Of a stretch of 64,000 nucleotides of DNA, positions 1-39,484 are shown piece after piece (positions within the stretch are counted from its first letter, which is position 1; every line of letters begins with the position of its first letter). Position numbers and translations under genes: made by a program. The notes under the pieces are model-generated. The model was not told the origin of the DNA, did not search any database, and saw nothing but the letters and a program-made list of their open reading frames with translations. Origin of the DNA: Crambe crambe (Eukaryota > Porifera > Demospongiae > Poecilosclerida > Crambeidae); assembly GCA_963924555.1 (NCBI GenBank), contig OZ004583.1, forward strand, positions 1,087,501 through 1,151,500, read 5' to 3'.

Positions 1-2275
1 AAACAAACAGCCAAATAGGCACAATTATGATACAAGGTATGTAGCATAGCTGCATGGTATAATTAAACAGAGCATGCATGCATGCAGCTTCTATGTTAGA
101 GCACATAATTATGTGGAGAGATGATAATTATAGGAAGTGATCTTTTCATAGGGCCATTAGCTGGTGTCAGTAATTTGACCACTGGTGATCTGATCCCTGG
201 TCGATCAACCCTCCTCTCATGGGTTTCCCCCTTCTCTCTGGATGTGACCAATGTTGAACCTGATATTACTTACTGTGTGGATGTTTATATGTACAATGAT
301 ACGATGAGACATCAGATTCGGTCAACATGTGGTGTCACTGCTACTGCATACAATGTAACATTCAATGAAGGAGAAGTCACTCCATGCGACATTGTTAACA
401 TAACTGTCATTCCTGTTAATGGACAGCCCAATAGTTTAATCAATGGAACTGAAAGATATGTGGACTCTGTCTACATGTTTGAAGGTAGCCGCCATGCAAC
501 AGCTATAGATATAGCCACAGTTAATAGTAATACTTTTGGTGCAGGCATTGGGAACTTTCCTGCAAATGATGTCATAAAACACTCCAGAGAAGTCACTGTG
601 GATACAATGGAAGTGAATTTACAACTCCCTGTGAGTTTTGGTAATAGCAGATACTGGCTACCAATTATTCAGTGTTTTTGATCAAAGTTTGTAAGGTTGG
701 TTTCTATCAGCTATGCTGAAAATTTTTTGAACACATGCATTCTAGTCTATCCATAACCATTTTGATTAATGAATCCAATCTGCATGCTTGGAAAGGCCCT
801 GGTGAAATCCAGGGGGAATTTGCTAGCAGATCAGACTAATATGTAACTATAGCTGCTCATGAATAGCTCTTTCCATACTTCCCATTATCTAGAATTATAG
901 TTCTGATTACACTGCGTTCAGCTCGCTCTAGAACTAGCTATACTTATAGCTATACTGCATTCCTATAACTCGTGATCATAATAATAATATTTGTTTTGTT
1001 TACTATACATGCAGGTGTCACACCATATTTGCAGAACTAGCTGTTGGATTTATGTGTCTTCCACTAGTGGGAAGTCCTACAACTTAAGTTCAGATAATGA
1101 GCTGACCTGTAGTGGAAATAACATCACTTTCACAGCATCCAATTCCAATGCCACTGATACAGCACTACCAATAAATGACATCTATTTTGCCAAGATCCAA
1201 ATTGGTAATGCCGCAGGAATTGGATATTCAGTGGGTGATATTCACATAAGTGAGTCCATGTACTATAGCTACATTAGAGGGAGTAGCTATAGCTACAGTA
1301 TCCATGGCAACAAATATCTCACATGATTCACATTCCATGCAGGCACACATCCCATACAAGAGGTGGAGTCACATGTAAATGAAGATGGATCTGTGCAAAT
1401 AAACATATCGTTTACAAAAGATAGTTCTGCCAGAGGTGCTCAGGTCATATTTAGCCCTCATAATCTGAACAAAACCACTTGTACTAATCTTGCTGTGCAC
1501 AATGTACGAAAATCTAGTGATCGAAACATGGCAACAGTTACTGCTAGAGACATACTCAAAGGCACTTACAATCTGAATGTCTACACACTAAATCATAATG
1601 GTGTTCCAGATTCACGTGCAAGGCCAGTAAATAGTCCAATGGAAATATCCATCAGCAGAGATCAAAGTAAAAGAGGTCAACTGTAACTATATAACAGTGA
1701 AAATAACAATATTAATTTTAATTTCTGCAGGCATTTCACGCAATACAGCAGCTGGTAATAACGGTGTCAGTGTGAAATATTTCAATAAAACAGCTGTAAC
1801 TATTATATACCCAAAAAATCCTGGTGGATACGTAGCAGTCATTTTATCAAATGGTAGTTCAGAGTATTCTCCATTGCAATTTCCTGGAAATAGTGTCCAT
1901 TCTACAGTAATGATACACAATGAGACTACCTCCTGCCTATCTCTGTTTTCACGAGACAGAGACAATGGAATTATATCTTCGAGTAAACCAATCCGTGTAT
2001 TTATTACTACCAAGGAAAGACAAGATAATTTTATAATAATTGCCATTGTTTTAACTGTTATCATCGCTGCTACTCTAATAATACTTCCTGTTATACTAAT
2101 AAAAAAGAGTAAGTTTAATTACTATCATAAATAATAGCTAATCATTATTTTCATACACCTAATAATAGCTATAGGACGAAGAAGAAGAGTATATCTTCGT
2201 GATGCTTCATGGAAAATAGTAAGACCCAAATCAAGGGAAGTGAATGATATGGAAATTGAAGAAATGAACAATTAA
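1..2275 (+). CDS. Receptor B1: Ig/FN3-type single-pass membrane receptor, 5' end outside window
   Basis: Partial gene; the window opens in the last bases of its Ig exon (1-36). Inferred exons: 152-484, 545-630, 1015-1249, 1343-1666, 1731-2108, 2175-2275. Exon 152-484 is FN3-like (LLSWVSPFSL, ITYCVDVY, VIPVNG). Later exons carry further beta-sandwich-like modules with many N-glycosylation sites (NIT, NAT, NKT). Exon 1731-2108 holds the last extracellular module and one transmembrane helix (about 2030-2100, FIIIAIVLTVIIAATLIIL). A short basic tail follows (KKRRRRRVYLRD...), ending MEIEEMNN at a stop at 2273-2275. Exon order and splice phases match B2 and B3. It is probably a cell-surface recognition or adhesion receptor; the ligand is unknown. 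Family placement rests on domain look and paralogue comparison, not a search. Confidence 0.75.
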
Positions 2276-3427: not shown

Positions 3428-6289
3428 ATGGATGACATCAAGTTTGATATATTCCTTGCAGTAGGATTCATAGTGGTCATTAGTCAATGTTCTGCAAATA
3501 GTAAGTTTTTAGCTAGCTAGCTATCTATAGGTTGAATTTCAAATCACCATATGCGATTACAGCTAATTATCTTTTCAGATTTCACCATTTCTCCTCAATC
3601 TGTGAACATCACAGAAAGATCAACAGTATCATTTCATTGTCGTGTTGAAGGAGCATTAGCTATTATATGGCATGTGAATGAAACTGTATCTCGGCAACTA
3701 CCAGGAGCACTAAGAACAGCAATAATGATGAGTGAAGGAAGTAGTGAGAAAGTCTTCTATCTCACTGTGACTGCACAGCCTGTCATCAATAATAGTAGGA
3801 TAGTGTGTGTAGGAATATTTGCTGACAGACGGATATACAGTGAACCTGCTTTACTTCTGATACAGGGTAAAGTTTAATAATGTACTTACTTATAGCTAGT
3901 TCTGATCTAGCCATACATTTTCCCTATTATTCAAGCTTGTATAGATATTGTGAAATAATGGTGCACTGCATGTGCATGGCTACTTTTTTTGGTGTCCCTG
4001 ACAAGTGTGCTTAATCTTGCATCACAAATATATTATATCAACAGGTCAACTACGACAAGTGGACAATTTAACTGTCGAGATTGCTACTGATCTTTCCCTA
4101 ATAATTCAGTGGATTGCTCCTTTTTCACTTGCCATTACATCACTTAATTCAAGCACTGAAGTTACATATTGTGTGGATGTGTACAACAGCACTGACCAAA
4201 CACTGGAAACATCTATTTGTGGACTTAATGAGACACAGTACAGATATGAGGCAATGTCAGATCCAAGTCCTTGTGATGGTGTGGATATCTATGTCATTCC
4301 TGTCAACAGTGCTGGAAATGGTTCAAGAAGTCGCATAATGGGAACATTCTATAACAGTATGTTTATTTGGCAATCATTGGTATACTTGCAAGTAATGCTA
4401 TTCTCATAACTTTCAGGACCAGATTCCCTTATGATATCTCATCTGGACCACACTGTTATACTTACTTTAGAAAATAACATGCTGATCCAAATCAGCAGTA
4501 TTAATATAGTAAGTATTAGGATAATGTGTCCACACAATAGCTATTTATTTTTAAGCTCTAGCTACATATGATAATTTCATGATGTGTTTATGTGTAATGG
4601 AACTTTAAATATCAATCAGCTCTTGACACTAGCTCAAGGGATTAGCTAATAACTGGTGTAGTTATGGTAAGCTACAAAATTTGTCATTACTGTTTATACA
4701 GGGTTCGAATACATGTTATTGCTCTGCTTGCATGAGGATTACGCTGAATGGATCCAGTACATGCTACAATGCAACATGTCATAATAATGAGATATCTGTT
4801 CTCATCAACAATGTAGAATGGAACCAAATGTATATGATGACGATAGTTTTGCATAACAGTGCAGGATCCATCATTTCCCATGACAGCTTGAAACTTAGTA
4901 AGCATAACATAATAATTATATAGCTAATTGGTTTGCCATGATAATTACTTGATCATTCAGGTACTCATGATGTGCAAAATATTACTGTCAATTCCACAGT
5001 AGTTTCAGGAACAGTTGAAGTGAATGTGCACTTTCTAAGGGACTCACTAGCTAGAGGATGTCTCCTCATTTTGTCCCAAGCACAATACACACGTTATTTT
5101 GCTATCAAAAAAGAGAGTAATAGAGAGATAAAGAGCAAGTACATTGAAAACTTACAACAAGGGGACTATGTTATCCGAGGATATGATATTGAAAGGAATG
5201 GTCTTCCTAGTCACCCAACACCAGCAATTACATACAGTTTTACTCTGAGCAGAGGTTCAGCATTTTGGAATCAAGGTTGGTAGCTAATATCAGTAAAACA
5301 ATGTAATTCAGTTCATTTACCACGAACATGCAGTCATTACATCAAATCGAATAACTATTGATTCTGATGATAGTGGCAGTATATGCATAAACTGTATGAT
5401 CATCACAGTATCAGATGCATTGGGGTGTGTGGTACTTCTGCATCCAGTGAATGACTTAAGTAACATCACTATCAGAGAGATCAGTAAATATATTAAGCAA
5501 CCTTACTGCATTCACGTTGGCAGAGATAATGCATTTTCTGTTGCTGTCTTTGAGTGGAAAAGTGATGGTTTCATTGGCTTTCAACCAGTAACTGTTGTTG
5601 AAGTATCAACTATTAACCAGCTAAGTAAGTAACTATAGCCATGCACAGTTGTAGTCAACAGACTAGCTATAATATTATTATTGTAAATAGATTAATGTTT
5701 GGATAACTGGATATTTGGGACTACACATATGTAGCTATAGAACATAGATAATTACCATAATAATCATATATTGTGATTTTGCAGAAACTCTACATGTTGC
5801 TCTAATAGGTAAGGAGTGCACTGTGATATACTGTAGCTAGCTGTAATAGTGTACTCATTCCAACCATATGCAGCTGCTTCTGGTGGGTTTCTTCTTCTAC
5901 TGATTTCCTGCCTTCTAACAATACTGCTACTTGCTTTTAAATTCAGCTGTGCTAGGTCTAAAAGAAAGAAAAAAGGTTGATAATCTATGAATTAATTTTG
6001 TAGAATTTTGGAATCTAATTTCAGTCCATTCTGGGCTTCTATTTATACCAATAACCATAAATCCGATTCATCGGAATAAAGCCTCTTTATTGCATGCACT
6101 ATCTGTGGATGTTCCAGTCATGTAGGCTATAAATTTTGTATTCATATGTAGCTATATAATTTCTATATCGTAGGAAATGTGCACAGTGGAGACATGAAAA
6201 TGAATGATAACATGGCCTATGCTGTACCTAAAGAGTGCTCACTGTCACATGACTCTACAGTTAACACTATTTATGAGTTTATTAATTAA
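3428..6289 (+). CDS. Receptor A1: Ig + FN3-like receptor with ITSM-like tail
   Basis: Exons: 3428-3500, 3579-3866, 4045-4356, 4417-4508, 4702-4897, 4961-5275, 5334-5624, 5785-5808, 5874-5975, 6174-6289. Exon 1 is a signal peptide (MDDIKFDIFLAVGFIVVISQ). Exon 2 is an Ig-like domain with the two cysteines (SFHCRV, RIVCVG) and a core Trp (IIWHVNE). Exon 3 is FN3-like (IIQWIAPFS, TYCVDVYNST, VIPVNSAGNGS). Later exons give three more extracellular modules (SARGC/LARGCLLILSQ; VVLLHPVNDL). A 24-base microexon precedes the transmembrane exon (GGFLLLLISCLLTILLLAF). The tail carries MAYAVPKE and ends TVNTIYEFIN: TIYEFI fits TxYxxI (ITSM), and YAVP fits a YxxP SH2 site. All junction phases agree. Probable surface recognition receptor; function unproven. 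Confidence 0.82.
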
Positions 6290-6587: not shown

Positions 6588-9500
6588 ATGGCTGCTTCTT
6601 TTTTTCTTATCCTTAGTTTCCTTATTATCAACTGTTATGCCCAAGAAATGACACCAAATGATCCAAACTGTGAGTTCATGGCTGTAGCTAATAATACCAG
6701 TCGTGTCATTTTATTCCTAGCTAGCTATGTATGTGTTATAGTTTCTATTCAGCCTCCAAGTGAAACTTTAGTCTTCACATATGGATCAACTGCTGAGTTC
6801 CAGTGTCAACTTCAAAGTATCGTGTCCATGACTGTTGAGAGAGTTGACTGGGAGGTGACAGGTTTAATGAGATATCGAGGAGTAAACACAGTACCAGATA
6901 GATTTGGTGAGGGATATGATCACAATAGCTTGAGTAATGAAGCATGAACATTGACATAATTATTCTACAGGTGTCTATTGCACTATTGCCGACAATATTC
7001 ATCATATATTTTTACCAATCCAAGAAAATGGTGTTGGTAATAACACCAGAGTGCAGTGCATAGCTGTGTTTCTAACAACCTCCAGTGGTGTAACTCCAGG
7101 AGTGGGGAGTCGGCAGGGTACCATTCAAATACAAGGTATATATCTATTGATGAGTAGCTATGCATGTAGAGATTATTACATATATTATAGGGCCATTAGC
7201 TGGTGTCAGTAATTTGACCACTGGTGAGTTGATTCCTGGTCTATCAATCCTCCTCTCATGGGTTGCCCCCTTCACTCTGGATATAACCAATGTTGAACCT
7301 GACATCACTTACTGTGTGGATGCCCGTGTGATCAACTTGCGTGGTACAAGTCATACTATTCGGATAATATGTGGTATCACTGCTACTGCTTATAATATGA
7401 CATTCAACGAAGGAGAAGTTACACCATGTGACACTGTAGGAGTGACTGTCACTCCAGTTAATGGACAGCTTAATAATGGAACTAGAAGGGACATTGACTC
7501 CATCCATTTATTTGAAGGTATACATTACAACTATGATTATATTAATGCTATGTACATGTATATATGTGTGCAGGTCCTGGCAATTTTTCTGCAAATGATG
7601 TTGAAATTTCTTCCAGTGTAGTGAATCCAGGTAGAACTGAGTTCAATATACGACTACCAGTAAGTTCATTACATAACCAAAGGTGTGTCATCTGAGGCCA
7701 TCTGTCATTATTATTCATAGCTAGCTATTATAACTTCATGAATAGCTAATAATTCTGTTGCTATGTGCATGTCATGCAGACTTCAATTCAAATGTGTCAA
7801 ATTGACTGCAGTATCCATGCATCCTCTGCCAGTGACTCTTATCACCTAAATTCAACCAATGGCTTTCTCACATGTGATGAAAATGTGATCACCTTTAGAG
7901 TATCTAATGATACCACCCGTACAGCACTACCCATAAACAACATCTATTCTGCCAACATTCAAGTTGCTAATACTGCTGGAATTGGATATGGTAGTATAAA
8001 TATAAGTGAGTGATGATAGTTATAGTTCATAGTAGCTATTATTATAACTTGCATGATTTGGGGACTGCAGGTACATTTCCCATACAACAAGTCGAGTTCA
8101 ACAATACTGATTCGGAAGATAGTTCCGTACAGATAAAGATGACCTTCACACACAACAGTCCAACAAGAGGAGGTCAAGTCATAATAAAACCTGAGATCCT
8201 GGATGATTCAACTTGCTCAAATCTGATCATAAGAAATCTAGAAAAAATGGATGATTCAATCTCAACCACTATTAATAACATTTCCAGAGGAACTTACGAT
8301 ATTAACATCTACACTCTAAATCACAATGGTATTCCAAAGTCACATGCTGAGCCAGTAGCAGTTAAAGAAGAAACATTCCTCAGATATGGTATCAAATCCA
8401 CATAATATAGACTGGATGTACAAAATACTGGTAATGATTATTATTAGGTATACTGCAGGATTTAACTGGTGATGGACATGGCATCAGTGTAGAACGTGTC
8501 AATGATACAGCTATAAATCTCAGATTCCCTGCAAGAGAGGATGGCTATATAGCAATTGATTTATCAAGTGAACATTCAGCATATTCAGTGTATCAAATTC
8601 CTGGAGATACAACTGTTTACCAAGTGCCACTTAGTGGGAATGTTTCCTGTTTATCTTTATTTCCTCGACACAGAGACAATGGAATCTTATCATCCAACAC
8701 ACCAGTTAGCTTACTGATTACCAATGAGAGGAGTACAAGTAGTACTGCTACTAGTGCTGTTACTAGTATTACTACTGGTGCTACTAGTGCTACTATTATT
8801 GGTGCTGTAGTAGTGTCTGTCAGTTTGCTTTTGGTGATTATTGGAATAATCTCATTATTCTACTATAAATGTATGTACTGTACGTATACATAATATTTGG
8901 ACTAAATGATCATTATCATTAATTTTATAGTTTCTCATAAGAAAAAAGTAAGCCCCTTTGAAAAACAACCGTCAGGTATGTTATGTTAATGAAGCATGAT
9001 GTCATTATTATTCTTCAAAATTTCAAAAGTTGTAGAAAATATATATTTGGAGAGTATGGCAGATAATGTACAACTGCAATCAACTACATCACTAGAGCAT
9101 AGAAATGGTGATGAACAATCTGGTATGTTTTTATAGCATATCATATCTACAGCTGCATTACATAAGAGCTATTCTGATTCATTTCTCAGCAAAACAGATG
9201 CCACGAACATTGTCACAAAACAGTTACTTTTCAAATAAAAGTCAATCATCTGAGCCTGCAATTGACAACCAACACTTTTGTATGTATGAAGCAGCTGAAA
9301 ACGATTATGGTATTCATATTATGTTGACTATTATTCAGATGCTGAAGGAGAATCGAGACAGAATGGAATGACAGGAAAATCTGAAAAGCATAATATGGAT
9401 ATCCCTCTTGTAATATAGAATAGTTGCAAGCTAGCTTGCTATAATAATTATACTGCCAATTGCTTTAGGTTCTGGAGGAGTACAATGGTGAGGAGGATGC

Positions 9501-10521
9501 CAGTTCATCAGTACCAACACTGGCTAATAACTGTACTGAGAATGAACCACCTAAGGAATCTGATTCTGTACCAGTGTCACATGATCCAGCTGAAGCATTG
9601 CCTGTGAAGTCACAATGTTCACTATTGCAAGGATCACCAAGCCATGATACTTTACCTGAAACATCAATTAAACCTGATACAAATCCTGGTATATAATGTC
9701 ATTCATTAAAGCACATTCATGATGATTTTCTCATAATTTTTTTCAGGGGCTACAATAGAAGCTCCATCAGAAGAAATGGTAGATGGAATGAAGGTGAAAT
9801 GGTTTAGAAAATGTTTCTGAAACACATAACCTAAATAATCATCATTACAATTATAGGATTCCAGTCTGCCTGATTCTATTGAAGATGACAAAACTGATGA
9901 TAGTGAATATATCAGTGCTACTTCAAATTCAGAACCATCAATGAGTGGATCTTATGCATTTGATCAATCACAGTCTGGTATGTGTTACATGTAATATCCA
10001 CACAAGCAGTGACATAATTATGAATCCACCATGATGATGCAGATCATTCAGAATCTTGCTTACCTGTAAAGTCACAAGTTCAAGAAGACTCCAAATTGAA
10101 GCTGGAAATGACTGCAGAAAGATTGCTACCAAGACGTTTTCACGAACTTGATGGTCGCAGTATGTTTAAATAATCACTATCAGTAATGCAGAAATGCATT
10201 ATGATAATATTATTACAGTAATAGCAAGAATAGAAGAACTGACTGGTGGAGTTAAGAAGCACATCAAAATTTCACCTAACCTTATAGTATGCTTAATAAA
10301 TGGTTTATATAATTCCTTATCATTTCTGTCATAGCTTGAGGTTATGGAGAGATACAATATGGAGGAGCATCTAGGAAAGGTACCTGTACTGGCTGATAAA
10401 TGGAAGGAATTCACCAAAATCTTAAAGAACTATGCTAAGCATTATTATGATAAAGTCTTTGATGATTACTCAAAAAGAAAGACAAGGGAGCGACCTCTTA
10501 ATAAAGGTAGCTTTTACTAAA
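6588..10521 (+). CDS. Receptor B2: Ig/FN3 receptor with long multi-exon cytoplasmic tail
   Basis: The start at 6588 gives a good signal peptide (MAASFFLILSFLIINCYAQ). Inferred exons: 6588-6669, 6742-6906, 6971-7135 (Ig halves), 7191-7517 (FN3-like, ITYCVDAR), 7574-7659, 7780-8005, 8071-8388, 8448-8870 (last extracellular module, a Ser/Thr/Gly-Ala stretch, then helix GAVVVSVSLLLVIIGIISLF), 8931-8975, 9036-9122, 9190-9309, 9339-9410, 9469-9690, further small exons at 9747-9793 and 9857-9979, 10042-10160, and last coding exons to a stop near 10521. The acidic Ser-rich tail contains tyrosines (NIYLESM, CMYEAAENDYG, EEYNGEE, SEYISA, GSYAFDQ) that could be phosphorylation sites. The final ~110 residues are charged and helical-looking (RIEELTGGVKKHI, MERYNMEEHLGK) and were not recognised. 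A stop at 9416-9418 gives a shorter alternative product if the weak donor at 9411 is not used. Confidence 0.65.
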
Positions 10522-10721
10522 AGTTATGCTATGACCGTCAACTTGTTTGTTTATCAAACAGATATCAAAGTGATATTAATCCTAGACCTGATACGAAATA
10601 TGATGACCAAAATGAAATTGTTAGAGGATAAAAAGGCTAATCTTTTTTATTATGATAAAAGAGTAGGTTTATGAGAAATCTTCCTATTCAGTACTTAAAT
10701 ATTGCAATTTTTTTATTTGTA

Positions 10722-11019
10722 GTCACATTCTGACTCAGCCCTGCACCATGCTGAAGTTTCACAGTTGATATTTTCAGCAGATGAAGCAAAAAGGGGGGTT
10801 AAAGTCTCTGTCTTCTACAAAGGGAAGGAAATCCTGTCTGCATCAGCACTGGATGGGATTTTGGACTTGATAGCTCTGCACATGGTGCATGATGAGTTAC
10901 CACAAGACTCCATGTTTGCTCTACTGATGTACTACGTATTTGGAATACAGCGAAACTCTTTTCCACACAAAGACCCTGTATTCTCCAATGCCGCATCCTT
11001 CAATGCACTAATATTATGA
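10722..11019 (+). other. Unrecognised ORF, possible exon or transposon fragment
   Basis: Open frame of about 98 codons, preceded by a pyrimidine-rich tract and AG, ending SFNALIL-stop at 11019. It contains FSADEAKRGVKVSVFYKGKE and LDLIALHMVHDELPQDSM. It has no similarity to the receptor family and was not recognised. It could be a last exon of B2 spliced past 10506, or the C-terminus of a transposon protein. Confidence 0.3.
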
Positions 11020-23799: not shown

Positions 23800-24285
23800 G
23801 AGTTTTCTTCAGTGCAGCTAGTTCGGAAGGAGTTTTCTTCAGTTCGGAATTTTCACTGCGAAGGTTTTCAGTTCGGAAGGTCTTCAGTTCGGAATTTCAC
23901 TGCGGAGTTTTCTTCAGTTCGGAATTTTCACTGCGGAGGTTCAGTTCGGAAGGTTCTTCAGTTCGGAATTTCACTGCGGAGTTTTCTTCAGTTCGGAATT
24001 AGTCTGGCGTCAGTTCGGAATTTCATTCTTCAGTTCGGAATTTTCGTTTCGGAGGTTTTTCAGTTCGGAATTTTCACTGCGGAGGGTTCTTCAGTTCGGA
24101 ATTTCACTGCGGAGTTTTCTTCAGTTCGGAATTAGTCTGGCGTCAGTTCGGAATTTCATTCTTCAGTTCGGAATTTTCGTTTCGGAGGTTTTTCAGTTCG
24201 GAATTTTCACTGCGGAGGGTTCTTCAGTTCGGAATTTTCACTGCGGAAGGTTCTTCAGTTCGGAATTTCGTTTCGGATCCCAAAA
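23800..24285. repeat. TTCAGTTCGGAATTTT minisatellite (right, plus orientation)
   Basis: About 480 bases of units around CTTCAGTTCGGAATTTTCAC, TGCGGAGGTT and TTCGTTTCGGA. They include a larger repeat that recurs in 24000-24190 around TTAGTCTGGCGTCAGTTCGG. It is the reverse complement of the array after the gap (16251-16475). Open frames read through it (SSVRNF... units) only because the unit lacks stops. Confidence 0.9.
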
Positions 24286-25722: not shown

Positions 25723-26376
25723 AATTAATACCAGTAAAACTCATTTTTGTTATTGTCGTTGTGTTGCTACTTTTATTAGTTTAATTCTTATATCTGAATC
25801 AAGTTTAGATGCTTTCTTAATAGCATAAGTGTGTCCAACTGCTTGCAAACAGACATAAAGACTCAAAATTGCATGTCGTTGCAAGCAGTCAGTGCATGCC
25901 TTATATGTTTTAATTAACTATCATTGAAACTAAAACAATTCCCAAATGCCTGAAGATGGACACATGTATGAAGATGATGTAAACATTATATTCATGATCC
26001 ATAATCTCTAATGGAAACAGTTCATATTTAGGTTATAGCTTAGAAATACACTCTCTTGATATTTTCCTATGATATACCCATGCATGATGTAATTCAGAAC
26101 CCAAAGAATGATTGTTGGCAGAATGGAGTACACAAGTCACTATAACTTATCAAGCATTAATCTTGGTGGAAACTCCATTAAATAAGGGTGGTTTATTCTT
26201 TCTGTTGCATGCTTCGTGCAATCATGCATAACCCATACGTATGTGTATCTCACAAATAATAATATAATGATGATGTGATCACGTGAGAGATACCAAATCA
26301 TATAAAACCACACCCTATTCAATTTCTATTCACAAAAGCCTGTGCATGCATCTATATAGTGAGCATGATAACAGTT
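25723..26376. other. Duplicated spacer upstream of A4, with promoter
   Basis: About 650 bases nearly identical to 29063-29716, differing by only a few bases. No gene was seen. TATAAAA at 26301-26307 is a likely TATA box, 76 bases before the A4 start codon. Confidence 0.7.
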
Positions 26377-29062
26377 ATGGATAGCATCCAGTTTTATCTA
26401 TTACTTGCAGTAGTGGTTGGTATCTGTCACTCTTCTACATCTAATGGTAAGTTTTAATAATGCATGATTTTTAACTGCTATAATTCCATGGAGCGTTGGC
26501 CATCCATCCATGCTATAGCTTTAATACTAACAGGAACCACTGTTAGTTACTAGCAAAGGTAAAAGGTATCTTAATCAACACTTTCTAATGCAGAGTTCAC
26601 TGTTTCTCCTCAATCAGTGAACGTCACAGAAGGATCAAAGGCATCATTTTATTGTCGCTTTGAAGGAGCAGTGGCTATCATCTGGCATCTCAATGGAACT
26701 CCAATCAATAACCTACCTGAAACATTAAGAAATCTGTCTAACATAACTAGAGGAGAAGAATTCTACTCTGATGGCAAGTTAGTTGGCTACCTCCGTATGA
26801 TTGCAGAGCCAATTATGAATAATAGTAGAATTCAGTGCATAGGAATACTAGCCAGTAATAATCGCACACACAGTGAACCTGCTCTACTCTTAATACAAGG
26901 TAATAGCACAAGCTCGCTAGCTATATTTATTATGAAGTTGTCTTTCTTTTTCTGAAGGCGAATTAATAGTAAATGATTTAACTGTTGAGATTGCTACAAT
27001 TAATTCACTACTAATTCAGTGGAGAGCTCCTTTTTCTCTTATCATCACATCACCTAATTCAAATATTGAAGTAACATATTGTGTGGACGTGTACAACAGC
27101 ACTGACCAGACATTGAAAATATCCATTTGTGGACTTAATGAGACACAGTACAGATATGAGGCAATGTCAGATCCAAGTCCCTGTGATGGTGTGGATATCA
27201 ATGTCATTCCTGTCAACAGTGCTGGAAATGGTTCCAGTAATCATATTATAGGAACCTTTTTTGACGGTATGATATTAAAACATGTTATAGTACATGCCAC
27301 TATCAACTAGCTATATCATACAGAACCTGATCCTCTCATGTTATCAGAGTTTGGTCACAATGTTACACGTACTTCAGAAAATGGGATTTCAATTGGAGTT
27401 GGTGTAAGAAGCATGCAGTATATAGTGTAGCTAGTGTTAGCTAGCTAATAGTGTAGTCTATATAGTGTACCTATACATGATGATTATGTTTGTGATATCA
27501 TAGGGTTTGATCATGGATGTTTGTTATTGCTCTGCCTGTGTAAGACTGCTGAATGGAGAACTCAGTACCAAAATGTGTTTCAATGCTTCATGTGATGATA
27601 ATCAGATATCCCTTTTCATAAACAGTTTGGAGTGGAATCAGATGTACTCTATGACTATAACATTGCATAACAGTGCTGGGTCTACAGCTTCTAATGATAG
27701 CTTGACATTTAGTAAGTAGCTAAAGACATTATTATTGCATATTATTTTCACAATCTTGCAACCCATTCAGGCACTTATGATGTACAAAACATTACTCTTC
27801 ACTCCACGATGGTACCGGGAAGAGTGAGAGTCGATGTGCACTTTCTAAGGAGTTCACTAGCTAGAGGATGTCTTCTTATTTTGTCCCAAGCACAATATAC
27901 AGGCTATTTTGCCATCAAGAAAGAGAGTGGAAAGGAAGTGCAAAGTACACACATTGAAAACTTGCCTGAGGGAGAGTACACTGTCCGAGGTTATGACATG
28001 GAAAGTGGTGGTCTTTCTTACCATTCAACACCAGCAGTAATCCACTATTTCAGCATACACAGAGGATCAACATTACAGAATCAAAGTGAATGCATGATTG
28101 CTAATCCTCATATTTTTGCTGGAGGTGCCAGTAATATTTGCATAAATTATACACTGGCCATGGGATATGTATATGTGGTGCTACATCCAGTGAATGACTT
28201 GAATAACATCACTGTCAAGAATATCAACTTTACTTCACAGCAAGACTACTGCATTCATGTTGGTGGTGAAGACATTTTCTCTGTTGTGGTGTTTGAGTGG
28301 ACAAGTAATAGTTTTCAGCTCACAACTGTCGTCAATGTTTCTACCTTTTATCAACCAATTGCATCATCAACTAGAGTTGAGGTTCCCACCAGAAATGAAC
28401 CAGGTGAGTCAGCTATCACTGCATCCACTGATAATTCTATAAATAGCTATAGCAACTCTTCAAATTGAAATCAAAACATGCATCATAGTTATCAAAACAT
28501 TCAGTGACCTGAGATATGCAGGGCAAGCTAAAAATGAGCAGCTAATTATGTTTGTGTATGTGTGTGATGTATGTGTGTATGCACACACATGTCACATGGC
28601 TCCCTCCTTTCATCCTCTTATACATGTGTACAAGTGATACTAGGTTTAGGTATGCATTGATAACTGACTTTTTCATTGTTTAGAAATTTCTCTAATTCCT
28701 CGCATTACTCTAGGTAAGTTTTTTCCATTAATTTGCTTCTTTGCTTATCCATTCTTTACATGCATGCAGGTGTCAGTGGTGGATCTATTCTGCTAGTAAT
28801 CTCCAGCTGTGCTGTACTGATCCTCCTTGCAATCAAAGTCAAATATTTTGCACCTAAAATGAAGAGGGAAGGTATATGGTGCCACCTCTATTTGAGCTAA
28901 TAGTTTTCAATTATCTGTACATTTATAGAATCCAATGTGGATTATGAAGATGTGGTAATGAATGAAGAAGATGTGGTAATGAATGAAAATATGGCTTATG
29001 ATGTACCTAAAGAATGTTCACATGACTCCACAGGTTCTGTCATTTATGAGTATATTGACTAA
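26377..29062 (+). CDS. Receptor A4: Ig + FN3-like receptor with ITIM-like tail
   Basis: Exons: 26377-26446 (signal peptide MDSIQFYLLLAVVVGICHSS), 26594-26899 (Ig; SFYCRF, IIWHLNG, IQCIG), 26958-27266 (FN3-like; TYCVDVYNST, VIPVNSAGNGS; preceded by a 58-base intron), 27324-27403, 27504-27711, 27771-28403, 28684-28713 (30-base microexon), 28770-28871 (helix GGSILLVISSCAVLILLAI), 28929-29062. Exon 27771-28403 fuses two modules that are separate exons in A1 and A2. The tail has duplicated DVVMNE, MAYDVPKECS and terminal SVIYEYID; VIYEYI matches the ITIM consensus, and YDVP is a YxxP site. This is the only complete member of the A3-A4-A5 duplication with the standard tail. Confidence 0.85.
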
Positions 29063-29716
29063 AATTAATACCAGTAAAACTCATTTTTGTTATTGTCGTT
29101 GTGTTGCTACTTTTATTAGTTTAATTCTTATATCTGAATCAAGTTTAGATGCTTTCTTAATAGCATAAGTGTGTCCAACTGCTTGCAAACAGACATAAAG
29201 ACTCAAAATTGCATGTCGTTGCAAGCAGTCAGTGCATGCCTTATATGTTTTAATTAACTATCATTGAAACTAAAATAATTCCCAAATGCCTGAAGATGGA
29301 CACATGTATGAAGATGATGTAAACATTATATTCATGATCCATAATCTCTAATGGAAACAGTTCATATTTAGGTTATAGCTTAGAAATACACTCTCTTGAT
29401 ATTTTCCTATGATATACCCATGCATGATGTAATTCAGAACCCAAAGAATGATTGTTGGCAGAATGGAGTACACAAGTCACTATAACTTATCAAGCATTAA
29501 TCTTGGTGGAAACTCCATTAAATAAGGGTGGTTTATTATTTCTGTTGCATGCTTCGTGCAATCATGCATAACCCATACGTATGTGTATCTCACAAATAAT
29601 AATATAATGATGATGTGATCACGTGAGAGATACCAAATCATATAAAACCACACCCTATTCAATTTCTATTCACAAAAGCCTGTGCATGCATCTATATAGT
29701 GAGCATGATAACAGTT
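29063..29716. other. Duplicated spacer upstream of A5, with promoter
   Basis: Near-identical second copy of 25723-26376. TATAAAA at 29641-29647. No gene was seen. Confidence 0.7.
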
Positions 29717-32700
29717 ATGGATAGCATCCAGTTTTATTTATTACTTGCAGTAGTGGTTGGTATCTGTCACTCTTCTACATCTAATGGTAATTTTTAATAA
29801 TGCATGATTTTTAACTGCTATAATTCCATGGAGCGTTGGCCATCCATCCATGCTATAGCTTTAATACTAACAGGAACCACTGTTAGTTACTAGCAAAGGT
29901 AAAAGGTATCTTAATCAACACTTTCTAATGCAGAGTTCACTGTTTCTCCTCAATCAGTGAACGTCACAGAAGGATCAAAGGCATCATTTTATTGTCGCTT
30001 TGAAGGAGCAGTGGCTATCATCTGGCATCTCAATGGAACTCCAATCAATAACCTACCTGAAACATTAAGAAATCTGTCTAACATAACTAGAGGAGAAGAA
30101 TTCTACTCTGATGGCAAGTTAGTTGGCTACCTCCGTATGATTGCAGAGCCAATTATGAATAATAGTAGAATTCAGTGCATAGGAATACTAGCCAGTAATA
30201 ATCGCACACACAGTGAACCTGCTCTACTCTTAATACAAGGTAATAGCACAAGCTCGCTAGCTATAATTATTATGAAGTTGTCTTTCTTTTTCTGAAGGTG
30301 AATTAATAGTAAATGATTTAACTGTTGAGATTGCTACAATTAATTCACTACTAATTCAGTGGAGAGCTCCTTTTTCTCTTATCATTACATCACCTAATTC
30401 AAATATTGAAGTAACATATTGTGTGGATGTGTACAACAGCGCTGACCAGACATTGAAAATATCCATTTGTGGACTTAATGAGACACAGTACAGATATGAG
30501 GCAATGTCGGATCCAAGTCCCTGTGATGGTGTGGATATCTATGTCATTCCTGTCAACAGTGCTGGAAATGGTTCCAGTAATCATATTATAGGAACCTTTT
30601 TTGACGGTATGATATTAAAACATGTTACAGTACATGCCACTATCAACTAGCTATATCATACAGAACCTGATCCTCTCATGTTATCAGAGTTTGGTCACAA
30701 TGTTACACGTACTTCAGAAAATGGGATTTCAATTGGAGTTGGTGTAAGAAGCATGCAGTATATAGTGTAGCTAGTGTTAGCTAGCTAATAGTGTAGTCTA
30801 TATAGTGTACTTATACATGATGATTATGTTTGTGATGTCATAGGGTTTGATCATGGATGTTTGTTATTGCTCTGCCTGTGTAAGACTGCTGAATGGAGAA
30901 CTCAGTACCAAAATATGTTTCAATGCTTCATGTGATGATAATCAGATATCCCTTTTCATAAACAGTTTAGAGTGGGATCAGATGTACTCTATGACTATAA
31001 CATTGCATAACAGTGCTGGGTCTACAGCTTCTAATGATAGCTTGATATTTAGTAAATAGCTAAAGACATTATTATTGCATATTATTTTCACAATCTTGCA
31101 ACCCATTCAGGCACTTATGATGTACAAAACATTACTCTTCACTCCACGATGGTACCGGGAAGAGTGAGAGTCAATGTGCACTTTATAAGGAGTTCACTAG
31201 CTAGAGGATGTCTTCTTATTTTGTCCCAAGCACAATATACAGGTTATTTTGCCATCAAGAAAGAGAGTGGAAAGGAAGTGCAAAGTATACACATTGAAAA
31301 CTTGTCTGAGGGAGAGTACATTGTCCGAGGTTATGACATGGAAAGTGATGGTCTTCCTTACCATCCAACACCAGCAGTCGTCCACTACTTCACCATACAC
31401 AGAGGATCAACGTTACAGAATCAAAGTGAATGCATGATTGCTAATCCTCATATTTTTGCTGGAGGTGCCAGTAATATTTGCATAAATTATACACTGGCCA
31501 CGGGATATGCATATGTAGTGCTGCATCCAGTGAATGATTTGAGTAACATCACTGTCAAGAATATCAACTTTACTTCACAGCAAGAATACTGCATTCATGT
31601 TGGTGGTGAAGACATTTTCTCTGTTGTGGTATTTGAGTGGACAAGTAATAGTTTTCAGCCTACAACTGTCGTCAATGTTTCTACCTTTTATCAACCAATT
31701 GCAACATCAACTATAATAGTTGAGGTTCCCACCAGAAATGAACCAGGTGAATTAGCCATCCACAGGGCCGGTGTCAAAGTCACGGATGACTCCCCCCGGA
31801 AAATGACTCCCCCAGTCATTCCTGCCTAAGGCATAAATGACTCCCCCCTGGTGAAAATGACTCCCCACACGGTCATTCCTGCCTTGGCGCCTGATCACAA
31901 TAAATCATGTAGCTAGCTAATTTATCTCAGGAAGAAGTTGATGCTGAAGATGATGATGAACCTGTGGGACAATTTTTATGTATAGCTATATAGCTGGCTA
32001 GCAACAAAAATGATGTCATGGATTTACTGCTCCTGTCAGATTCTGCATATTGTGACTGCCTGCATGATGCCAGAGATATGGTGGAATGTGAAGATTGCTT
32101 GAACTGGTTTCACCAAAACTGTGCATATTTTATTATAACTGTCCTTTGTGTAAGCACTATATATGATGCATCTTCCTTTGAACTTTAATGCATGCATATT
32201 CTGGTAGTCATTCATGCCTAGGATGGAATGATTCTCTTCCATGGCTATAGATTTTCAGGGAGTCATTCATGCCTAGTATGAAATGACTCCCCTTCAATCA
32301 TGCCGAGGATGAAATGATTCCCTTCCATGGCTATTAATTTTTCAGGGAGTCATTCATGCCTAGGATGAAATGATTCTCTTCCATGGCTATAGATTTTTCA
32401 GGGAGTCATTCATGCCTAGGATGAAATGACTCCCCTGGAGTCATTCATGCCGAGGATGAAATGATTCCCTTCCATGGCTATAGATTTTTCAGGGTGTCAT
32501 TCATGCCTAGGATGAAATGATTCTCTTCCATGGCTATAGATCTTTCAGGGAGTCATATATGCCTAGGATGAAATGACTTCCTTCCATGGCTTTTTCAGGC
32601 AGCCATTCATGCCTAGGATGAAATGACTCCCCTTCCATTTAGGGAGTCATTCATGCTGAGGATGAAATGATTCTCTTCCATGTCTATTGATAATTCATGC

Positions 32701-35700
32701 CTGGCAATTCGCCTCGTCAATCTCCCCTCAAAACTGGTTCCCAAAAGGTCAGGATATTGTAATGGACCATTGTGCTACATACTAAGATTGTGCAGAATAA
32801 GGAGGTACCTAGTAATTATCCTCGTCAACTTCCCCTCAAAACAGATTATCTGCTACAGTTCGCTTCAAAATCAATAGTCAACTATAATAGCTACCAATCC
32901 AATATATATTATTGTAGAGAAAGATCCAAAGAAGATGAAAAATATAGTGCTGGGTGGGAAATGGATCTGTGATGAACATATCATCCTTGCTCAGCATATC
33001 TTGAAGATCCAATTTCCGAATATTGGTGGATTTCAGTCACCATTGCTCTGCCAAAACGATGCCTTGATTCCAGTTCAGAATGGTGAAACAATACGTATGT
33101 GTAGGTACATACATGCATAGGTAGCTATTATAGCTATAATTTGTTTTTCTCATGCTCAGGAAGAAGTGGATGCTGAAAATGATGAAACAATGGAATACAG
33201 GAATATGCTATACATACATGTTCCTCCTGTGCAGCAACAAAGTGGTATCGTGGATTGTGGAGTATTTGCGATAGCTTTTGCTATCCATGCAGCACTAGGA
33301 GAAAATGTGGGAGAGATTGAATTCCAGCAGGAAGAAATGAGGAGCCATCTTTCTAAATGTTTATGGAAAAAAAACGTTTTCTCCTTTTCCAAAGTTGGGG
33401 GAAAGGGGGCATAGGGATAATTACTTCCCCTGTCGGATTCTGGAGTTATACTGTGACTGCCTTATGCCAGAGACATATGGCAACATGGTTGAATGTGAAC
33501 ATTGTTTTAATTGGTTTCACCAAGACTGTGTAGATTATGACAATATATAGTGAAAAAATTTTGTGCCGTTCATGCAATCATAGCTAGCTTATCTTCTTAT
33601 CGTTATTATTGTTATTGTATCAGCTGTGTGAGAATGAACGTTAATGCATTCACAGGGAGTTATTTGCCCCTTTATAAGCAAGCATCATTTCTTCCCCCAA
33701 TCTATGCATGGATGGAATGGGAGCTATTTCACGAATGACTCCCTGAAAAATTTATATCCATGGAATACATCCTAGGTACAAATGACTCCCTGAACTGAGA
33801 TAAATGGACTCCACATACATGCCAAACTAGCTATAGGAGAGTCATCCTAGGCACGAATGACTCACAATGAAGTGAACTTGTACATGGAGTGGCACGAATT
33901 ATAGCTACAGCTACACCGGAGTCATAGCCATGGAAAGGGAATTATTTCATCCTAGGCACCAATGACTCCCTGAATTGAGATAGTTGGACTACATGATTGG
34001 AGTCATAATAGCCATGGAAGGGGAGTCATTTCATCCTCGGCACCAATGACTCCATGAATTAAGATGACTGGACAGTCATGATAGCCATGGAAGGGGAGTC
34101 GACACATCCTACAGGCATGAATGACTCCCTATCCAATAACTCCCTGAAAATCTTGCCTAATGCCTGGCTATAGGATGAAATGACTCCCCTTCCATGGCTG
34201 TCATGACTCCAACTATGCATGCATGGGGGGAGTCCATCTATCTTGATTCAGGGAGTAATTTCTTCCTAGGCACAAAAGATTCCATTCACTCAATTTCATA
34301 AGCAACTATGGTATAAATCCTTGACCTATTATGATTTTGCATGCAGCAATGCAATGAATTGGGACTGGTGAGTCTTTTTTCAGGGGCAGACAAGTCAGAA
34401 ATGACTGGGGAGTCACTCAGACCTAGGCGTGAGTGACCGGGAGTCATCCACGCCTAGTCAAGAGTGCTCGGAACTGGGGAGTCATTTTTTCCAGGGGGGA
34501 GTCATTATAGACTAGTCAGAAATGACCGGGGAGTCACTCAGACCTAGGCGTGAGTGACCGGGAGTCATCCACGCCCAGGCATGAGTGACCGGGAGTCATC
34601 CACGCCTAGTCAGGAGTGACCGGGGAGTCATCGCCGAGGGGAGTCACCGCTGACTATGACACCGGATCCAGGATTTTTAGATAGGTGGGGTTGCAGGACT
34701 AGGAGCACACACACTGGGCCATGGGGAAGGATGCAAGTTATTTGGAGGATCCATGTTGACTTCACTTGTGGGCTGCCACTTTTTGAGCATTCGCTTCATA
34801 ATGCACAAATTAGATCCAAGAAATCCACCAAATCTCCCTCCAAACCTGTATACATAGACTGTTTCTTTCTTGACCATAACCTTAGATGATGATGGCTGTA
34901 GTAACCAGTTAGCTCATATATGTTCCTCTAATTATACTACTTTAGAGCAGAAACACAAGAAAAATAGATAGATACGGCTAGGCATGGTCAAATTGCACTA
35001 GCTATAGAGCTATAGTGTATCATTTTATCTACAGGCTTAGCTTGGGAACAAAAGGGGGGGGCCTCAACCCACCCCTGGATCCAGCCCTGCATCCATGCAG
35101 CTATGTAACTATACACATATCTACATATCACAACATAGAGACAAATAGGGTGTTATTTAGACCTCTATTATTGTAATGAACCCTCATCTCTTAATCATTC
35201 TTTCACTGTATATATAGGTACTGACCCAACAATAATAACTGCAGTTGGAGTTGTATCTGGAGCTGCAGTGATGATAATGGCAATAATACTGGTAACAATA
35301 AAGTGTAAATATCTCCCCAAAATTCACACTTCATCTTCCAAAAAGACTCAATTGAGATCAACTCTTACAGCAGTAGAATACCCCTTTCATTCAACACTTG
35401 ATATAACAGACCCTCAGTACGAAAGTATAGATGTAATTATGATTAATCCTGTACAGCAAAATGAGCAGCCCCAAGAATCTGATTACATTAGTACTGTTGA
35501 GTCACATGCTACACTATATGCCTCAGTGCAGGAGAACACTCATACACGATCATATAAAGATAATTTCCATAATACTATGTATTCAGCAGTACAGAAGCAG
35601 TCCATAAGTGCCAGAATGAAATCTCACAAAACTGAAACCCCAGAATGTGCTTCAGTGCAGAAGAAACAGTGCTCTTCTGATGCCTCCCACACTTACTCAG

Positions 35701-35885
35701 TGGTGACTAAGAAGTTTACAAAACCTAAAGTAAGATGTGAATTGGAAATGGATGACCATGTGTATGCTCAAGTGAACAAAACAAAGTCAAAAACTTCTCC
35801 TATCAACCTAGAAATGACCGACCACTGCAGCAATGGAGTTGATGAAAAGGAAGAAGAATCAAACCAGGTGCATCTCCTGCAATAA
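29717..35885 (+). CDS. Receptor A5: A4-like ectodomain with a different, multi-ITSM tail
   Basis: Exons 29717-29786, 29934-30239, 30298-30606, 30664-30743, 30844-31051, 31111-31745 copy A4 almost base for base, with no frameshift seen. The next acceptor in phase is at 35217, after a 3.5 kb transposon-filled intron. Exon 35218-35885 encodes a new transmembrane helix (TAVGVVSGAAVMIMAIILVT) and a ~200-residue tail. The phase across the junction is correct (CCA G|GT). Tail tyrosine motifs: PQYESI, DYISTV, TLYASV, TMYSAV, HTYSVV, HVYAQV. TLYASV and TMYSAV fit TxYxxV (ITSM). Two donors are weaker than in A4 (GTAATT after exon 1, GTAAAT after 31051). The joining of ectodomain to this tail is inferred from phase and order; a cDNA would settle it. 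Confidence 0.65.
31772..34661. mobile_element. Inner TIR transposon with GACTCC subterminal repeats and Ulp1/PHD remnants
   Basis: The left terminus TGTCAAAGTCACGGATGACT matches the right terminus, whose reverse complement is TGTCATAGTCAGCGGTGACT. Both are flanked by CCGG, a likely 4-base target duplication inside the outer element. Large arrays of GGAGTCATTCATGCCTAGGA / TGAAATGACTCCCC units lie inside both ends (about 31785-32690 and 33720-34655). The middle carries protease and PHD-finger fragments. About 2.9 kb. Confidence 0.75.
31920..33550 (+). pseudogene. Ulp1-like cysteine protease and PHD-finger fragments of the inner transposon
   Basis: PHD-like pieces lie at 32035-32120 (YCDCLHDARDMVECEDC, then WFHQNC) and 33447-33548 (YCDCLMPE..NMVECEHC, WFHQDC). 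A Ulp1/SENP-type (C48) protease lies between: 32930-33118 (GGKWICDEHIILAQHILKIQ) and 33160-33411 (PPVQQQSGIVDCGVFAIAFA). QQSGIVDCG carries the catalytic Gln and Cys region; the HW segment with the catalytic His is missing. The order protease-PHD is typical of transposon proteins in sponges and cnidarians. The frames are split by gaps and stops, so it is probably inactive. The duplicated PHD end suggests internal duplication. Confidence 0.6.
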
Positions 35886-36786: not shown

Positions 36787-39484
36787 ATGGCATGGCAGCT
36801 AATTGTGGTGTTGCTCGTGGTTTTGCCATTACAGCTTTATTCCCAAGTAATTAATACATGTGAGTTAAACGGTATATATATATATAGGTCCAGGACTAGC
36901 TCAAGGGGAAAAGGGGGAGTGATAGCTATTATAGTGTGATTTTAATAGTTTCTGTTCAGCCTCCAAGTGAGCCATTAGTCCTCACTTATGGGTCAGCTGC
37001 TGAGTTCCACTGTGCAGTTCAAGATCTTGCAGCTATTGAGAGAATAGACTGGCAACTATTTGTAAATGAATCCATTCAGTACAGAGGAGTCTTCTCAATA
37101 CCACCTAATTATGGTATATTATATAGGCACCACATAGCCAGTAGTTATTATACACATACCTAATTTAATTTATATACATGCAGGCATTCAAAGCACTGTT
37201 TCTGGGAATGTCTATACTATTACTATACCCATCAGAGAGGATGGGATCACTAACAACACAAATGTTCGATGTGTGGTAGTGCTGCAAGGAAACAATGGTG
37301 AAATAAACAGCCAAAATGGAACCATTATAATACAAGGTATCAGCTATTTAATATGCATTATAATTGCAGTTGCTTAGCTATAATTATTGCAGGGGGGGCT
37401 GAGGGGCCAATTGCCCTAAATATATAGCTATAACTAAGATTATCCCCTCCTTATACAATACAGCCCTGATGGGACTCATACGTAGGTAGCATTGTACCCA
37501 TTTTTCACTGTAAGTGCAAAAAATGGGCCTGGGGACAAGGTGGTTATGAATACATTTAAGTGACACACCCACTAATCTGATAAGGATAAAATACATGAAT
37601 TAAGAAGAGGAATTCATAGCTATCATTTTCATAGGACCATTAGCTGCTGTCAGTAATTTGACCACTGGTGATCTGATCCCTGGTCGATCAATCCTCCTCT
37701 CATGGGTTGCCCCCTTCACTCTCAATGTGACTAATACTGAACCTGACATCACTTACTGTGTGGATGTTTATATCAATGTGGTCTTACATCATATAAGATC
37801 AACATGTGGTATCACTGCTACTGCTTATAATGTGACATTTAATGAAGGAGAAGTTACACCATGTGACACTGTTAATGTGACTGTCATTCCTGTCAATGGA
37901 CTGCCCAATAATTTGATGAATGGAACCAGTAGAAACATGAATCCTGTTTATCTATTCAAAGGTATAACTACATGATATTAGCTTCTATCCCAGTGCATGT
38001 GTATAGGTCATATAAAATAATAAGGCTGCCATATTAGGCTATTGTTCAGCTGGTTAAGTAGTCAGCATGCAAGCAGCTTGTATGGCAATGATGCTTGCAG
38101 CTATAGTCAAGTGTAGTATTTGCCCATCAGAACTAGTTCCTATTATTATATCCACCATACATGCAGGCCTTAGAAACTTCTCTTCAAGTGATATTGAAGT
38201 ATCTTCTAGGCAACTGCCTCAACGTTTCATTGAGTTCAATATACTTTTACCAGTAAGCAATCATTAATGTATTCTTACTATCTAAACCAATTCTACACAA
38301 ATTCCAGGACACATTTCAGATGTGTAGAAGTAACTGCACTGTCCGTGCATCCTCTGCCAGTGGATCCTATGACTTGGGTTCAGAAAATAGCCTCATATGT
38401 GAAAGAAATGTGATCACTTTTAGGGTGTTTTTTTTTACTATCACTAATACAGAACTACCTATAAATGACATATATTTTACCAACATTCAAGTTGCAAATA
38501 GTGCAGGAACAGGATATTCAGTGGGTGATATTCAATTGAGTAAGTGATATCATAATTATGAATAATTATTAATGCCTCATTTTGGATGCAGGCACACATG
38601 TCATACAGCAGGTGGAGGCACGTGTGAATGCAGATGATTCTGTCAGCATGAACTTGTCATTCATAAGTGGCACTAGTTTAGCAAGAGGTGCCCAAGTCAT
38701 ATTCAGACCTGAAGAACTGAATGAAGCAACCTGCAAAAATATGATCATAAGGAATATTCCAAAATCTGATGATTCTCTTTCAAGTACCATTAGAAACATT
38801 CCCAGAGGTAGTTACACTATCAACGTCTATACACTGAATAAAGATGGTATTCCAGATTCACTTGCCGAGCCTGTTACCACAGGAATGAATATATCTATCA
38901 GCAGCAATACAGGTTACTATAAAGCATGCTAAGTTAGCAACTTGTGAAATATACAACTTCAATGATTCATACTTCGATCTTAATTTCTATAAAATCACAA
39001 TAGCTACAATAGCTAATGGCTACAAAATCTCCCCTAGCTATGTTTACCACACATTCAATTAAATGTTCATAAATTGATTAATAGAAAGTTTCACAATGAT
39101 TGTGCCCATCCCTCAGATACTTCACAAGACTCGGTTACTGGTTTCAGTGTGGAATATATATACGGGATATTCGTAACTATCAAGTACCCTGCAAGACCTG
39201 GAGGATATGTAGCAGTTTTTTTATATGAGGACTATTCAGAATATTCTCTCTTGCATTTTCCTGGAAATGGAACTGAATCTACAGTGTTGATATACAAGGA
39301 ATTTTGTTTATCTTTGTTCCCTCTACAAGGAAACAATGGAATCTTATATTCAAACACTCCAGCCAATTTCTTCATCCAGTATACTCCAGACCATACAGCA
39401 GTAATTATTGTAGGAATACTTATTACTGGAATGCTTTTTTTAACATGTGTCTTTGGAGTACTTTGCCTCCTTAAATTGCGATAG
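36787..39484 (+). CDS. Receptor B3: Ig/FN3-type receptor with very short tail
   Basis: Exons: 36787-36859 (signal peptide MAWQLIVVLLVVLPLQLYSQ), 36949-37113 and 37184-37336 (two Ig half-exons; EFHCAV, VRCVVV), 37635-37961 (FN3-like; ILLSWVAPFT, ITYCVDVYIN, VIPVNG), 38167-38252, 38308-38539, 38592-38912, 39117-39484. The last exon has an extracellular module (PGGYVAVFL, CLSLFPL) and one helix (AVIIVGILITGMLFLTCVFG), then only LCLLKLR before a stop at 39482-39484. B1 continues past the equivalent point into a basic tail. A matching AAAAGAAGAAGAAG stretch lies at 39544 but is out of reach of the frame, so the tail may have been lost. Such a receptor would need a partner to signal (inference). 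Confidence 0.8.

What the first reader, a model, noticed from the sequence alone, without database searches (positions are those of the whole stretch)
1..39484. Tandem array of Ig/FN3 receptors with immune-type tyrosine motifs in a sponge
Eight same-strand receptor copies (seven intact or partial, one pseudogene) share a signal peptide, one Ig domain, serial FN3-like modules and one helix, but differ in their tails. A1 ends TIYEFI (TxYxxI), A2 VIYETI and A4 VIYEYI (ITIM consensus), A5 has several YxxV/I motifs, and B3 has almost no tail. Rapid duplication, heavy N-glycosylation and mixed activating/inhibitory/tail-less forms resemble vertebrate paired immune receptors. A role in immunity or self-recognition is inference.
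Basis: partly seen in the sequence, partly recalled or inferred. Interest (0 to 1): 0.9.

Follow-up and report, generated by a model that had tools for sequence, protein, structure and literature searches.

The report
Sponge immune-type receptor gene cluster
A marine sponge carries a row of look-alike cell-surface receptor genes, part of a larger family in its genome, many of them ending in a short tyrosine signal like the off-switch of vertebrate immune receptors; they are good candidates for how a sponge tells self from non-self, but no function has been tested.

Summary
Eight same-strand receptor copies lie at 152-39,484: five intact (A1, A2, A4, B2, B3), one with a replaced tail (A5), one cut by the window edge (B1), one truncated pseudogene (A3). 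The seven non-pseudogene models splice cleanly. The host is a demosponge whose scaffold lengths match Crambe crambe. Module 1 is an Ig domain, module 2 a divergent FN3 domain; the two membrane-proximal modules are not recognisable as FN3 by sequence. The array belongs to a superfamily on at least eight contigs. An xIYExI tail motif is kept in 7 of 7 A-type tails; of 13 tails read from other clusters, 8 have a strict ITIM, 3 a near-match, 2 have lost it. The genome encodes a SHP2-like SH2-SH2-phosphatase. Best reading: clustered receptors whose phosphorylated tails dock SH2 proteins, probably inhibitory, used in cell or self/non-self recognition. Against or unsupported: no ITAM in 16 tails, no charged membrane residue, no positive selection in window pairs (dN/dS 0.34-0.53). 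Expression, binding and polymorphism were not testable.

The parts
152..2274 (+). B1, 3' part: FN3-1, later modules, TM, short basic tail without ITIM
   Evidence: model, 6 exons, GT-AG, open; 5' part lies upstream in an assembly gap
3428..6289 (+). A1, complete receptor, 10 exons, 602 aa
   Evidence: tail motif TIYEFI
6266..6283 (+). A1 tail motif TIYEFI (TxYxxI)
6588..11019 (+). B2, complete receptor, 20 exons, 1087 aa, cytoplasmic tail of about 490 aa with an unmatched C-terminal region
   Evidence: no family or PDB match for the tail end, no second copy in the genome
12464..15899 (+). A2, complete receptor, 10 exons, 608 aa
   Evidence: tail motifs VDYEDV and VIYETI
15876..15893 (+). A2 tail motif VIYETI (ITIM consensus)
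24317..25722 (+). A3, 5'-truncated pseudogene that still carries a VIYEYI tail
26365..29062 (+). A4, complete receptor, 9 exons, 627 aa
   Evidence: tail motifs VDYEDV and VIYEYI
29039..29056 (+). A4 tail motif VIYEYI (ITIM consensus)
29705..31746 (+). A5 ectodomain, 6 exons; similarity to A4 stops within 14 bp of the last donor
35218..35885 (+). TM and tail exon assigned to A5 (phase-compatible): five YxxPhi, two of them TxYxxV
   Evidence: junction with 31746 is inferred
36787..39484 (+). B3, complete receptor, 8 exons, 574 aa, almost no tail

Best explanation
This is one cluster of a larger, clustered family of single-pass surface receptors in a demosponge, most likely Crambe crambe. Outside the cell each has a signal peptide, one Ig domain, one FN3 domain and further beta-rich modules. 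The A-type tails, and most tails read from sister clusters, hold a conserved ITIM-like tyrosine motif. Proposed mechanism: the outer domains bind a ligand on another sponge cell or on a microbe; a Src-type kinase phosphorylates the tail tyrosine; the SHP2-like SH2-SH2-phosphatase, or SHP2-like tandem-SH2 proteins, dock there and dampen a response such as rejection or uptake. Tail-poor B members beside ITIM-bearing A members may be ligand-binding partners, adhesive forms or decoys. Shown here: gene structures, Ig and first FN3 domain, family size and clustering, motif conservation, presence of the effector gene. Inferred: phosphorylation, SHP2 docking, inhibitory sign, ligand, and the role in self/non-self recognition.
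For: Splice models. Ig profile match E 3.7e-8 and FN3 match E 1.8e-4 for module 2. 7 of 7 A-type tails in the genome keep xIYExI with T, V or I at -2, and MAY[AD][VL]P. Of 13 tails read from C6, C8, C9, C14 and C18, 8 are strict ITIM, 3 near, 2 lost, while ectodomain identity to the A family is about 30-45% at these clusters. Family: 57 of 77 hits of the B2 ectodomain lie outside C5; 63 and 68 overlapping hits of two tail types. SH2-SH2-phosphatase on C18 with PTPN11 as best PDB match of its second SH2 (E 6.8e-52). 32 SH2 hits on the window's own contig at 1.42-1.66 Mb; the unit read has SHP-2 as best match. Ig exon of C6 paralogues dN/dS 0.92 against 0.41 for FN3-1, P 0.045.
Against: No transcript, phosphorylation, binding or polymorphism data. 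Single-tail shuffles: p 0.085 (A1), 0.008 (A2), 0.165 (A3), 0.013 (A4), 0.086 (A5), so the motif is not striking tail by tail. Three window genes (B1, B2, B3) have no ITIM. Window gene pairs are under overall purifying selection (0.34-0.53). YEEI also fits a Src-family SH2 site and YxxPhi also fits an endocytic signal (recalled). Two of 13 sister tails have lost the motif.
Confidence: 0.5

Rival explanations
1. Adhesion or uptake receptors: the tail motif is a YxxPhi sorting signal (YETI, YEYI, YEEI) read by the AP-2 clathrin adaptor, not a phosphotyrosine switch, and the family grew for cell adhesion or particle capture.
For: All strict motifs are also YxxPhi; excess N-glycosylation sequons in the A genes fit adhesion proteins as well.
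Against: A hydrophobic residue or T at -2 and E at +1 (D in one of the tails read) recur across distant clusters, which sorting signals do not need (recalled). A second tyrosine motif (MAY[AD][VL]P) is kept in 7 of 7 A-type tails and does not end in Phi.
Confidence: 0.2
2. Tyrosine signalling that is not inhibitory: YEEI and YETI sites dock Src-family or adaptor SH2 domains and the receptors serve development or adhesion signalling.
For: YEEI is the favoured Src SH2 site (recalled) and occurs in sister tails; 135 SH2 hits in the genome give many possible readers.
Against: The residue at -2 fits the ITIM consensus in 5 of 7 A-type and 8 of 13 other tails. Lineage-specific tandem expansion and a weakly constrained Ig exon in C6 are unusual for developmental receptors.
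Confidence: 0.25
3. The A5 tail is not A5's: 35218-35885 is the remnant of another receptor gene and A5 is a gene that has lost its membrane part.
For: 3.5 kb of repeats and a Ulp1-like fragment (Peptidase_C48, E 0.0019, below the cut-off) lie between. Similarity to A4 stops within 14 bp of the donor.
Against: The exon has an acceptor in the right phase, carries its own TM and a long open frame, and I saw no other ectodomain exon in between. Related tails sit behind other ectodomains elsewhere, so tail exchange is plausible.
Confidence: 0.4

Closest known systems
Hydractinia Alr family in the allorecognition complex (cnidarian; PMC11067881 and PMC11999971, passages)
   Same: Clustered, duplicated single-pass IgSF genes with pseudogenes among them; ITIM and ITAM motifs reported on candidate genes (PMC12065747, passages).
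   Different: [quoted passage not shown] here one Ig, one FN3 and other modules, and no ITAM in the tails scanned. Polymorphism and a role in fusion are unknown here.
Botryllus fester and fester co-receptors (FcoR) in the fuhc locus (PMC12065747, passages)
   Same: Neighbouring genes in which one partner carries ITIM, hemITAM or YxxPhi motifs and the other no known signalling domain, as with the A and B genes here.
   Different: FcoR ectodomain is V-type Ig, sushi and two C2 Ig; no sushi domain was found here (Pfam). Pairing of A and B is a guess.
Vertebrate paired receptors (KIR, LILR, SIRP; recalled)
   Same: Tandem IgSF genes with ITIM-bearing and tail-less members.
   Different: No activating members with a charged membrane residue or ITAM found; FN3 and further modules follow the Ig domain; no homology beyond the Ig fold shown.
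Sponge aggregation factor and the Ig-bearing receptor tyrosine kinase of Geodia cydonium (PMC11999971 and PMC12018476, passages)
   Same: Sponge cell-surface or cell-contact molecules; the Geodia kinase has Ig-like domains.
   Different: The aggregation factor is an extracellular proteoglycan complex; the present proteins have short tails with docking motifs and no kinase domain.

Membership tests
Immunoglobulin superfamily | N-terminal Ig fold with the conserved Cys and Trp pattern | tested here: met
   I-set above cut-off in A5; 6 of 10 members match Ig_3 at E 0.1 or better; profile E 3.7e-8 to Ig domains of the same genome and none to FN3
FN3-containing receptors | FN3 domain after the Ig domain | tested here: met
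   Module 2: profile E 1.8e-4 (probability 49%) over 86 columns to FN3 and none to Ig; Pfam fn3 only weakly in 2 of 10 members
FN3-containing receptors | Serial FN3 domains | tested here: inconclusive
ITIM-bearing receptors | [SIVL]xYxx[ILV] or TxYxx[VI] in the cytoplasmic tail (consensus recalled), kept among relatives | tested here: met
   7 of 7 A-type tails, 8 of 13 other tails strict, 3 near, 2 lost; not met by B1, B2, B3
ITIM-bearing receptors | Phosphorylation and recruitment of SHP-type phosphatase | not testable with these tools
   Only the presence of a SHP2-like gene was shown
Vertebrate-type paired receptors | Activating partners with ITAM or a charged membrane residue | tested here: not met
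   No ITAM in 16 tails; none of the seven window membrane helices holds a charged residue away from its inner end (read)
[quoted passage not shown]
   One Ig domain followed by a FN3 domain
Botryllus FcoR | V-type Ig, sushi, two C2 Ig | tested here: not met
   No sushi and no second Ig found by Pfam
Allorecognition receptors | High allelic polymorphism that predicts fusion or rejection | not testable with these tools
   Only one assembly of one individual was held

The most novel reading that the evidence does not exclude
Sponges run an ITIM/SHP2-type recognition system: tens of clustered Ig/FN3 receptors with conserved xIYExI tails, expanded together with SHP2-like tandem-SH2 reader proteins on the same chromosome and with receptor phosphatases elsewhere. 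It would be either the oldest known branch of animal tyrosine-switch immunity or a further independent invention beside Hydractinia Alr and Botryllus FcoR.
Probability: 0.33. Interest if true: 0.92.

Novelty: new variant of a known kind. Interest (0 to 1): 0.75.

Why it matters
Sponges show tissue self/non-self recognition (PMC12018476, passages), yet my literature searches found no sponge receptor family with immune-type tails. ITIM-type allorecognition is described from cnidarians to mammals (PMC12065747, passages). A conserved ITIM-like motif in a clustered sponge family, with a SHP2-like partner in the same genome, turns the question of sponge self-recognition into genes and peptides that can be tested.

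Tried and rejected
Pfam on four whole proteins gave a single hit above its cut-off (I-set in A5), so I built profiles of paralogous modules and compared them with Ig and FN3 domains of the same genome.

Single-tail shuffles were mostly not significant, so conservation carries the argument.

B2's long tail as a separate gene: rejected as less likely, because 12 further exons follow the TM exon in phase. Its end matched nothing.

The kinase between A2 and A3 as part of a receptor: rejected, because A2 ends with its own stop; the kinase resembles plant receptor-like and IRAK kinases.

The PDB profile search with the FN3-1 module gave only weak hits, titin first at E 0.29. Searches on Crambe crambe allorecognition and immunity gave nothing usable.

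Dropped rows: for the C6 dN/dS sets I used 8, 7, 6, 6 and 5 rows for Ig, FN3-1, M3, M4 and M5 and left out the C5, C9, C13, C14, C15 and C18 rows, and cut-off copies. Alignment A9 places two short rows partly wrongly and was used for the model all the same.
Full report
What is there. The window is bases 1,087,501-1,151,500 of contig C5 in a 143.1-Mb, 119-contig genome. Between 152 and 39,484 eight related genes lie on the + strand in the order B1, A1, B2, A2, A3 (pseudogene), A4, A5, B3. I built splice models for each. The seven non-pseudogene models have only GT-AG junctions and no internal stop, and most ectodomain introns are in phase 1. One more A copy, A0, lies about 3-6 kb upstream of the window. 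The A3-A4 stretch and the A4-A5 stretch are 97.6% identical over 4.1 kb. Assembly gaps interrupt the array: 200 N at 16051-16250 and about 2.5 kb of N between A0 and B1.

Host. Of 17 matches to a cathepsin/silicatein active-site pattern, seven at C15:865-885 kb read CG[SA]SYAF, the serine form typical of silicatein (recalled), which points to a demosponge. Eight contig lengths (9.49, 9.08, 9.17, 8.84, 7.57, 7.33, 7.24, 6.57 Mb) agree with chromosomes 3, 4, 5, 6, 10, 11, 12 and 15 of Crambe crambe (9.49, 9.08, 9.18, 8.84, 7.57, 7.33, 7.24, 6.57 Mb; PMC12166358, passages). The published assembly has 124 scaffolds and 143.20 Mb, so the identity is very likely but not proven.

Ectodomain. Module 1 is an Ig domain: profile E 3.7e-8 to Ig domains of this genome, no match to its FN3 domains. 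Module 2 is a divergent FN3 domain: E 1.8e-4 (probability 49%) to FN3, no match to Ig. Modules 4 and 5 give no FN3 match (E 0.77 and 0.29); module 3 was not compared. AlphaFold2 makes module 4 a seven-strand beta domain (block pLDDT 72-87 over its first 90 residues) and gives module 5 low confidence; the module 2 model has eight strands at mean pLDDT 67.5. A fold search was not possible. N-glycosylation sequons exceed shuffles in A1, A2, A4 and A5 (14, 19, 18, 18 against means 6.1-7.8) and weakly in B1, B2 and B3 (13 each; p 0.03, 0.08, 0.04).

Tails. A1 has TIYEFI; A2 VDYEDV and VIYETI; A4 VDYEDV and VIYEYI; A5 five YxxPhi, among them TLYASV and TMYSAV. B1, B2 and B3 have no ITIM; B2 has one YxxPhi where shuffles give 3.5. 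No ITAM occurs in the 16 tails scanned. Tail by tail the motif is not striking (p 0.085, 0.008, 0.165, 0.013 and 0.086 for A1, A2, A3, A4, A5; 0.005 for A5 YxxPhi). Its conservation is: all seven A-type tails found in the genome keep xIYExI with T, V or I at -2 and MAY[AD][VL]P. Of 13 tails read from other clusters, 8 are strict ITIM (VVYEEI twice, IMYEEI, VMYEDI, VIYEEI three times, VIYDEI), 3 are near (QVYEEI twice, VIYEEM) and 2 have lost it (four of the 13 judged by eye). Two of the 8 are near-identical copies. The A5 tail exon has distant relatives on C8, C16 and C20; at the C8 locus an Ig-like exon lies upstream, at C16 the tail follows a different, Thr-rich ectodomain.

Family. The B2 ectodomain gives 77 hits, 57 of them outside C5, on C6, C9, C13, C14, C15, C18 and C66; C66 may hold allelic copies of C6, as scores coincide. 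Two tail types give 63 and 68 largely overlapping hits, mostly on C6 and C8. C6 genes repeat the order Ig, FN3-1, M3, M4, M5, TM, tail. Among C6 paralogues the Ig exon has dN/dS 0.92 (bootstrap 0.62-1.40) and FN3-1 0.41 (0.18-0.96); the bootstrap chance that Ig is not the higher is 0.045. In the window, seven gene pairs give 0.34-0.53; FN3-1 has the lowest or second-lowest dS among exons in the three A1/A2/A4 pairs (0.19-0.40), which suggests gene conversion. Positive selection is therefore not shown.

Mechanism. C18 holds an SH2-SH2-phosphatase gene whose second SH2 best matches PTPN11 (E 6.8e-52). On the window's contig, 32 of the 135 SH2 hits lie at 1.42-1.66 Mb, about 290-530 kb beyond the array, many in pairs. 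In the 4 kb read there, two tandem-SH2 units occur without another recognised long frame on that strand, and the first SH2 of one best matches SHP-2 (E 3.9e-18). My best reading is a receptor family whose phosphorylated tails dock SHP2-like proteins and probably dampen a contact or immune response. AP-2 sorting and Src-type docking remain open. The alternation of ITIM-bearing A and ITIM-less B genes recalls the Botryllus fester/FcoR pairs (PMC12065747, passages); pairing is a guess.

Comparison. Alr, FcoR and vertebrate paired receptors work alike in outline, but the domain make-up differs and activating features were not found, so I file the genes under none of them. Papers seen as passages: PMC11999971, PMC12065747, PMC11067881, PMC13087572, PMC12166358, PMC12018476; all others only as search listings. 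Huene 2022 and Grice 2017 were not held.

Noticed in passing
C5:1,417,826-1,656,255 of the same genome (L060 = C5:1,471,501-1,475,500): 32 SH2 hits, many in pairs about 400 bp apart; in the 4 kb read, two tandem-SH2 units without a recognised catalytic domain, the first SH2 closest to SHP-2. A possible co-expanded set of readers or decoys for tyrosine tails.
   Followed up: partly
C9:2.3-3.5 Mb, and stretches of C12 and C13 of the same genome: Large arrays of FN3 hits and protein tyrosine phosphatase hits interleaved, which look like expanded receptor-type tyrosine phosphatases (both lists capped).
   Followed up: no
window 18594-21480: A kinase gene between A2 and A3, closest to plant receptor-like kinases and to IRAK1/IRAK4, with about 1.6 kb of repeats inserted between two of its kinase exons.
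   Followed up: partly
window 16251-16476 and 23800-24280: A short-period satellite (TTCGGAATTTTC-type units) on both sides of the kinase region; one array abuts the truncated end of A3, the other an assembly gap.
   Followed up: no
window 31761-35140: Repeat-rich DNA with a Ulp1-like protease fragment (Peptidase_C48, E 0.0019, below cut-off) where A5 lost its original TM and tail exons.
   Followed up: partly
window 8931-11019: The B2 cytoplasmic tail ends in a region of about 250 residues with no family or PDB match and no second copy in the genome.
   Followed up: partly
window 48659-51175 (- strand): An open frame of 839 residues with no convincing Pfam match.
   Followed up: no
C16:4.77-4.82 Mb (L047, L049, L050): Receptor-like frames with a Thr-rich stalk and repeated SHVYSVVKK tail motifs, distantly similar to the A5 tail.
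   Followed up: no
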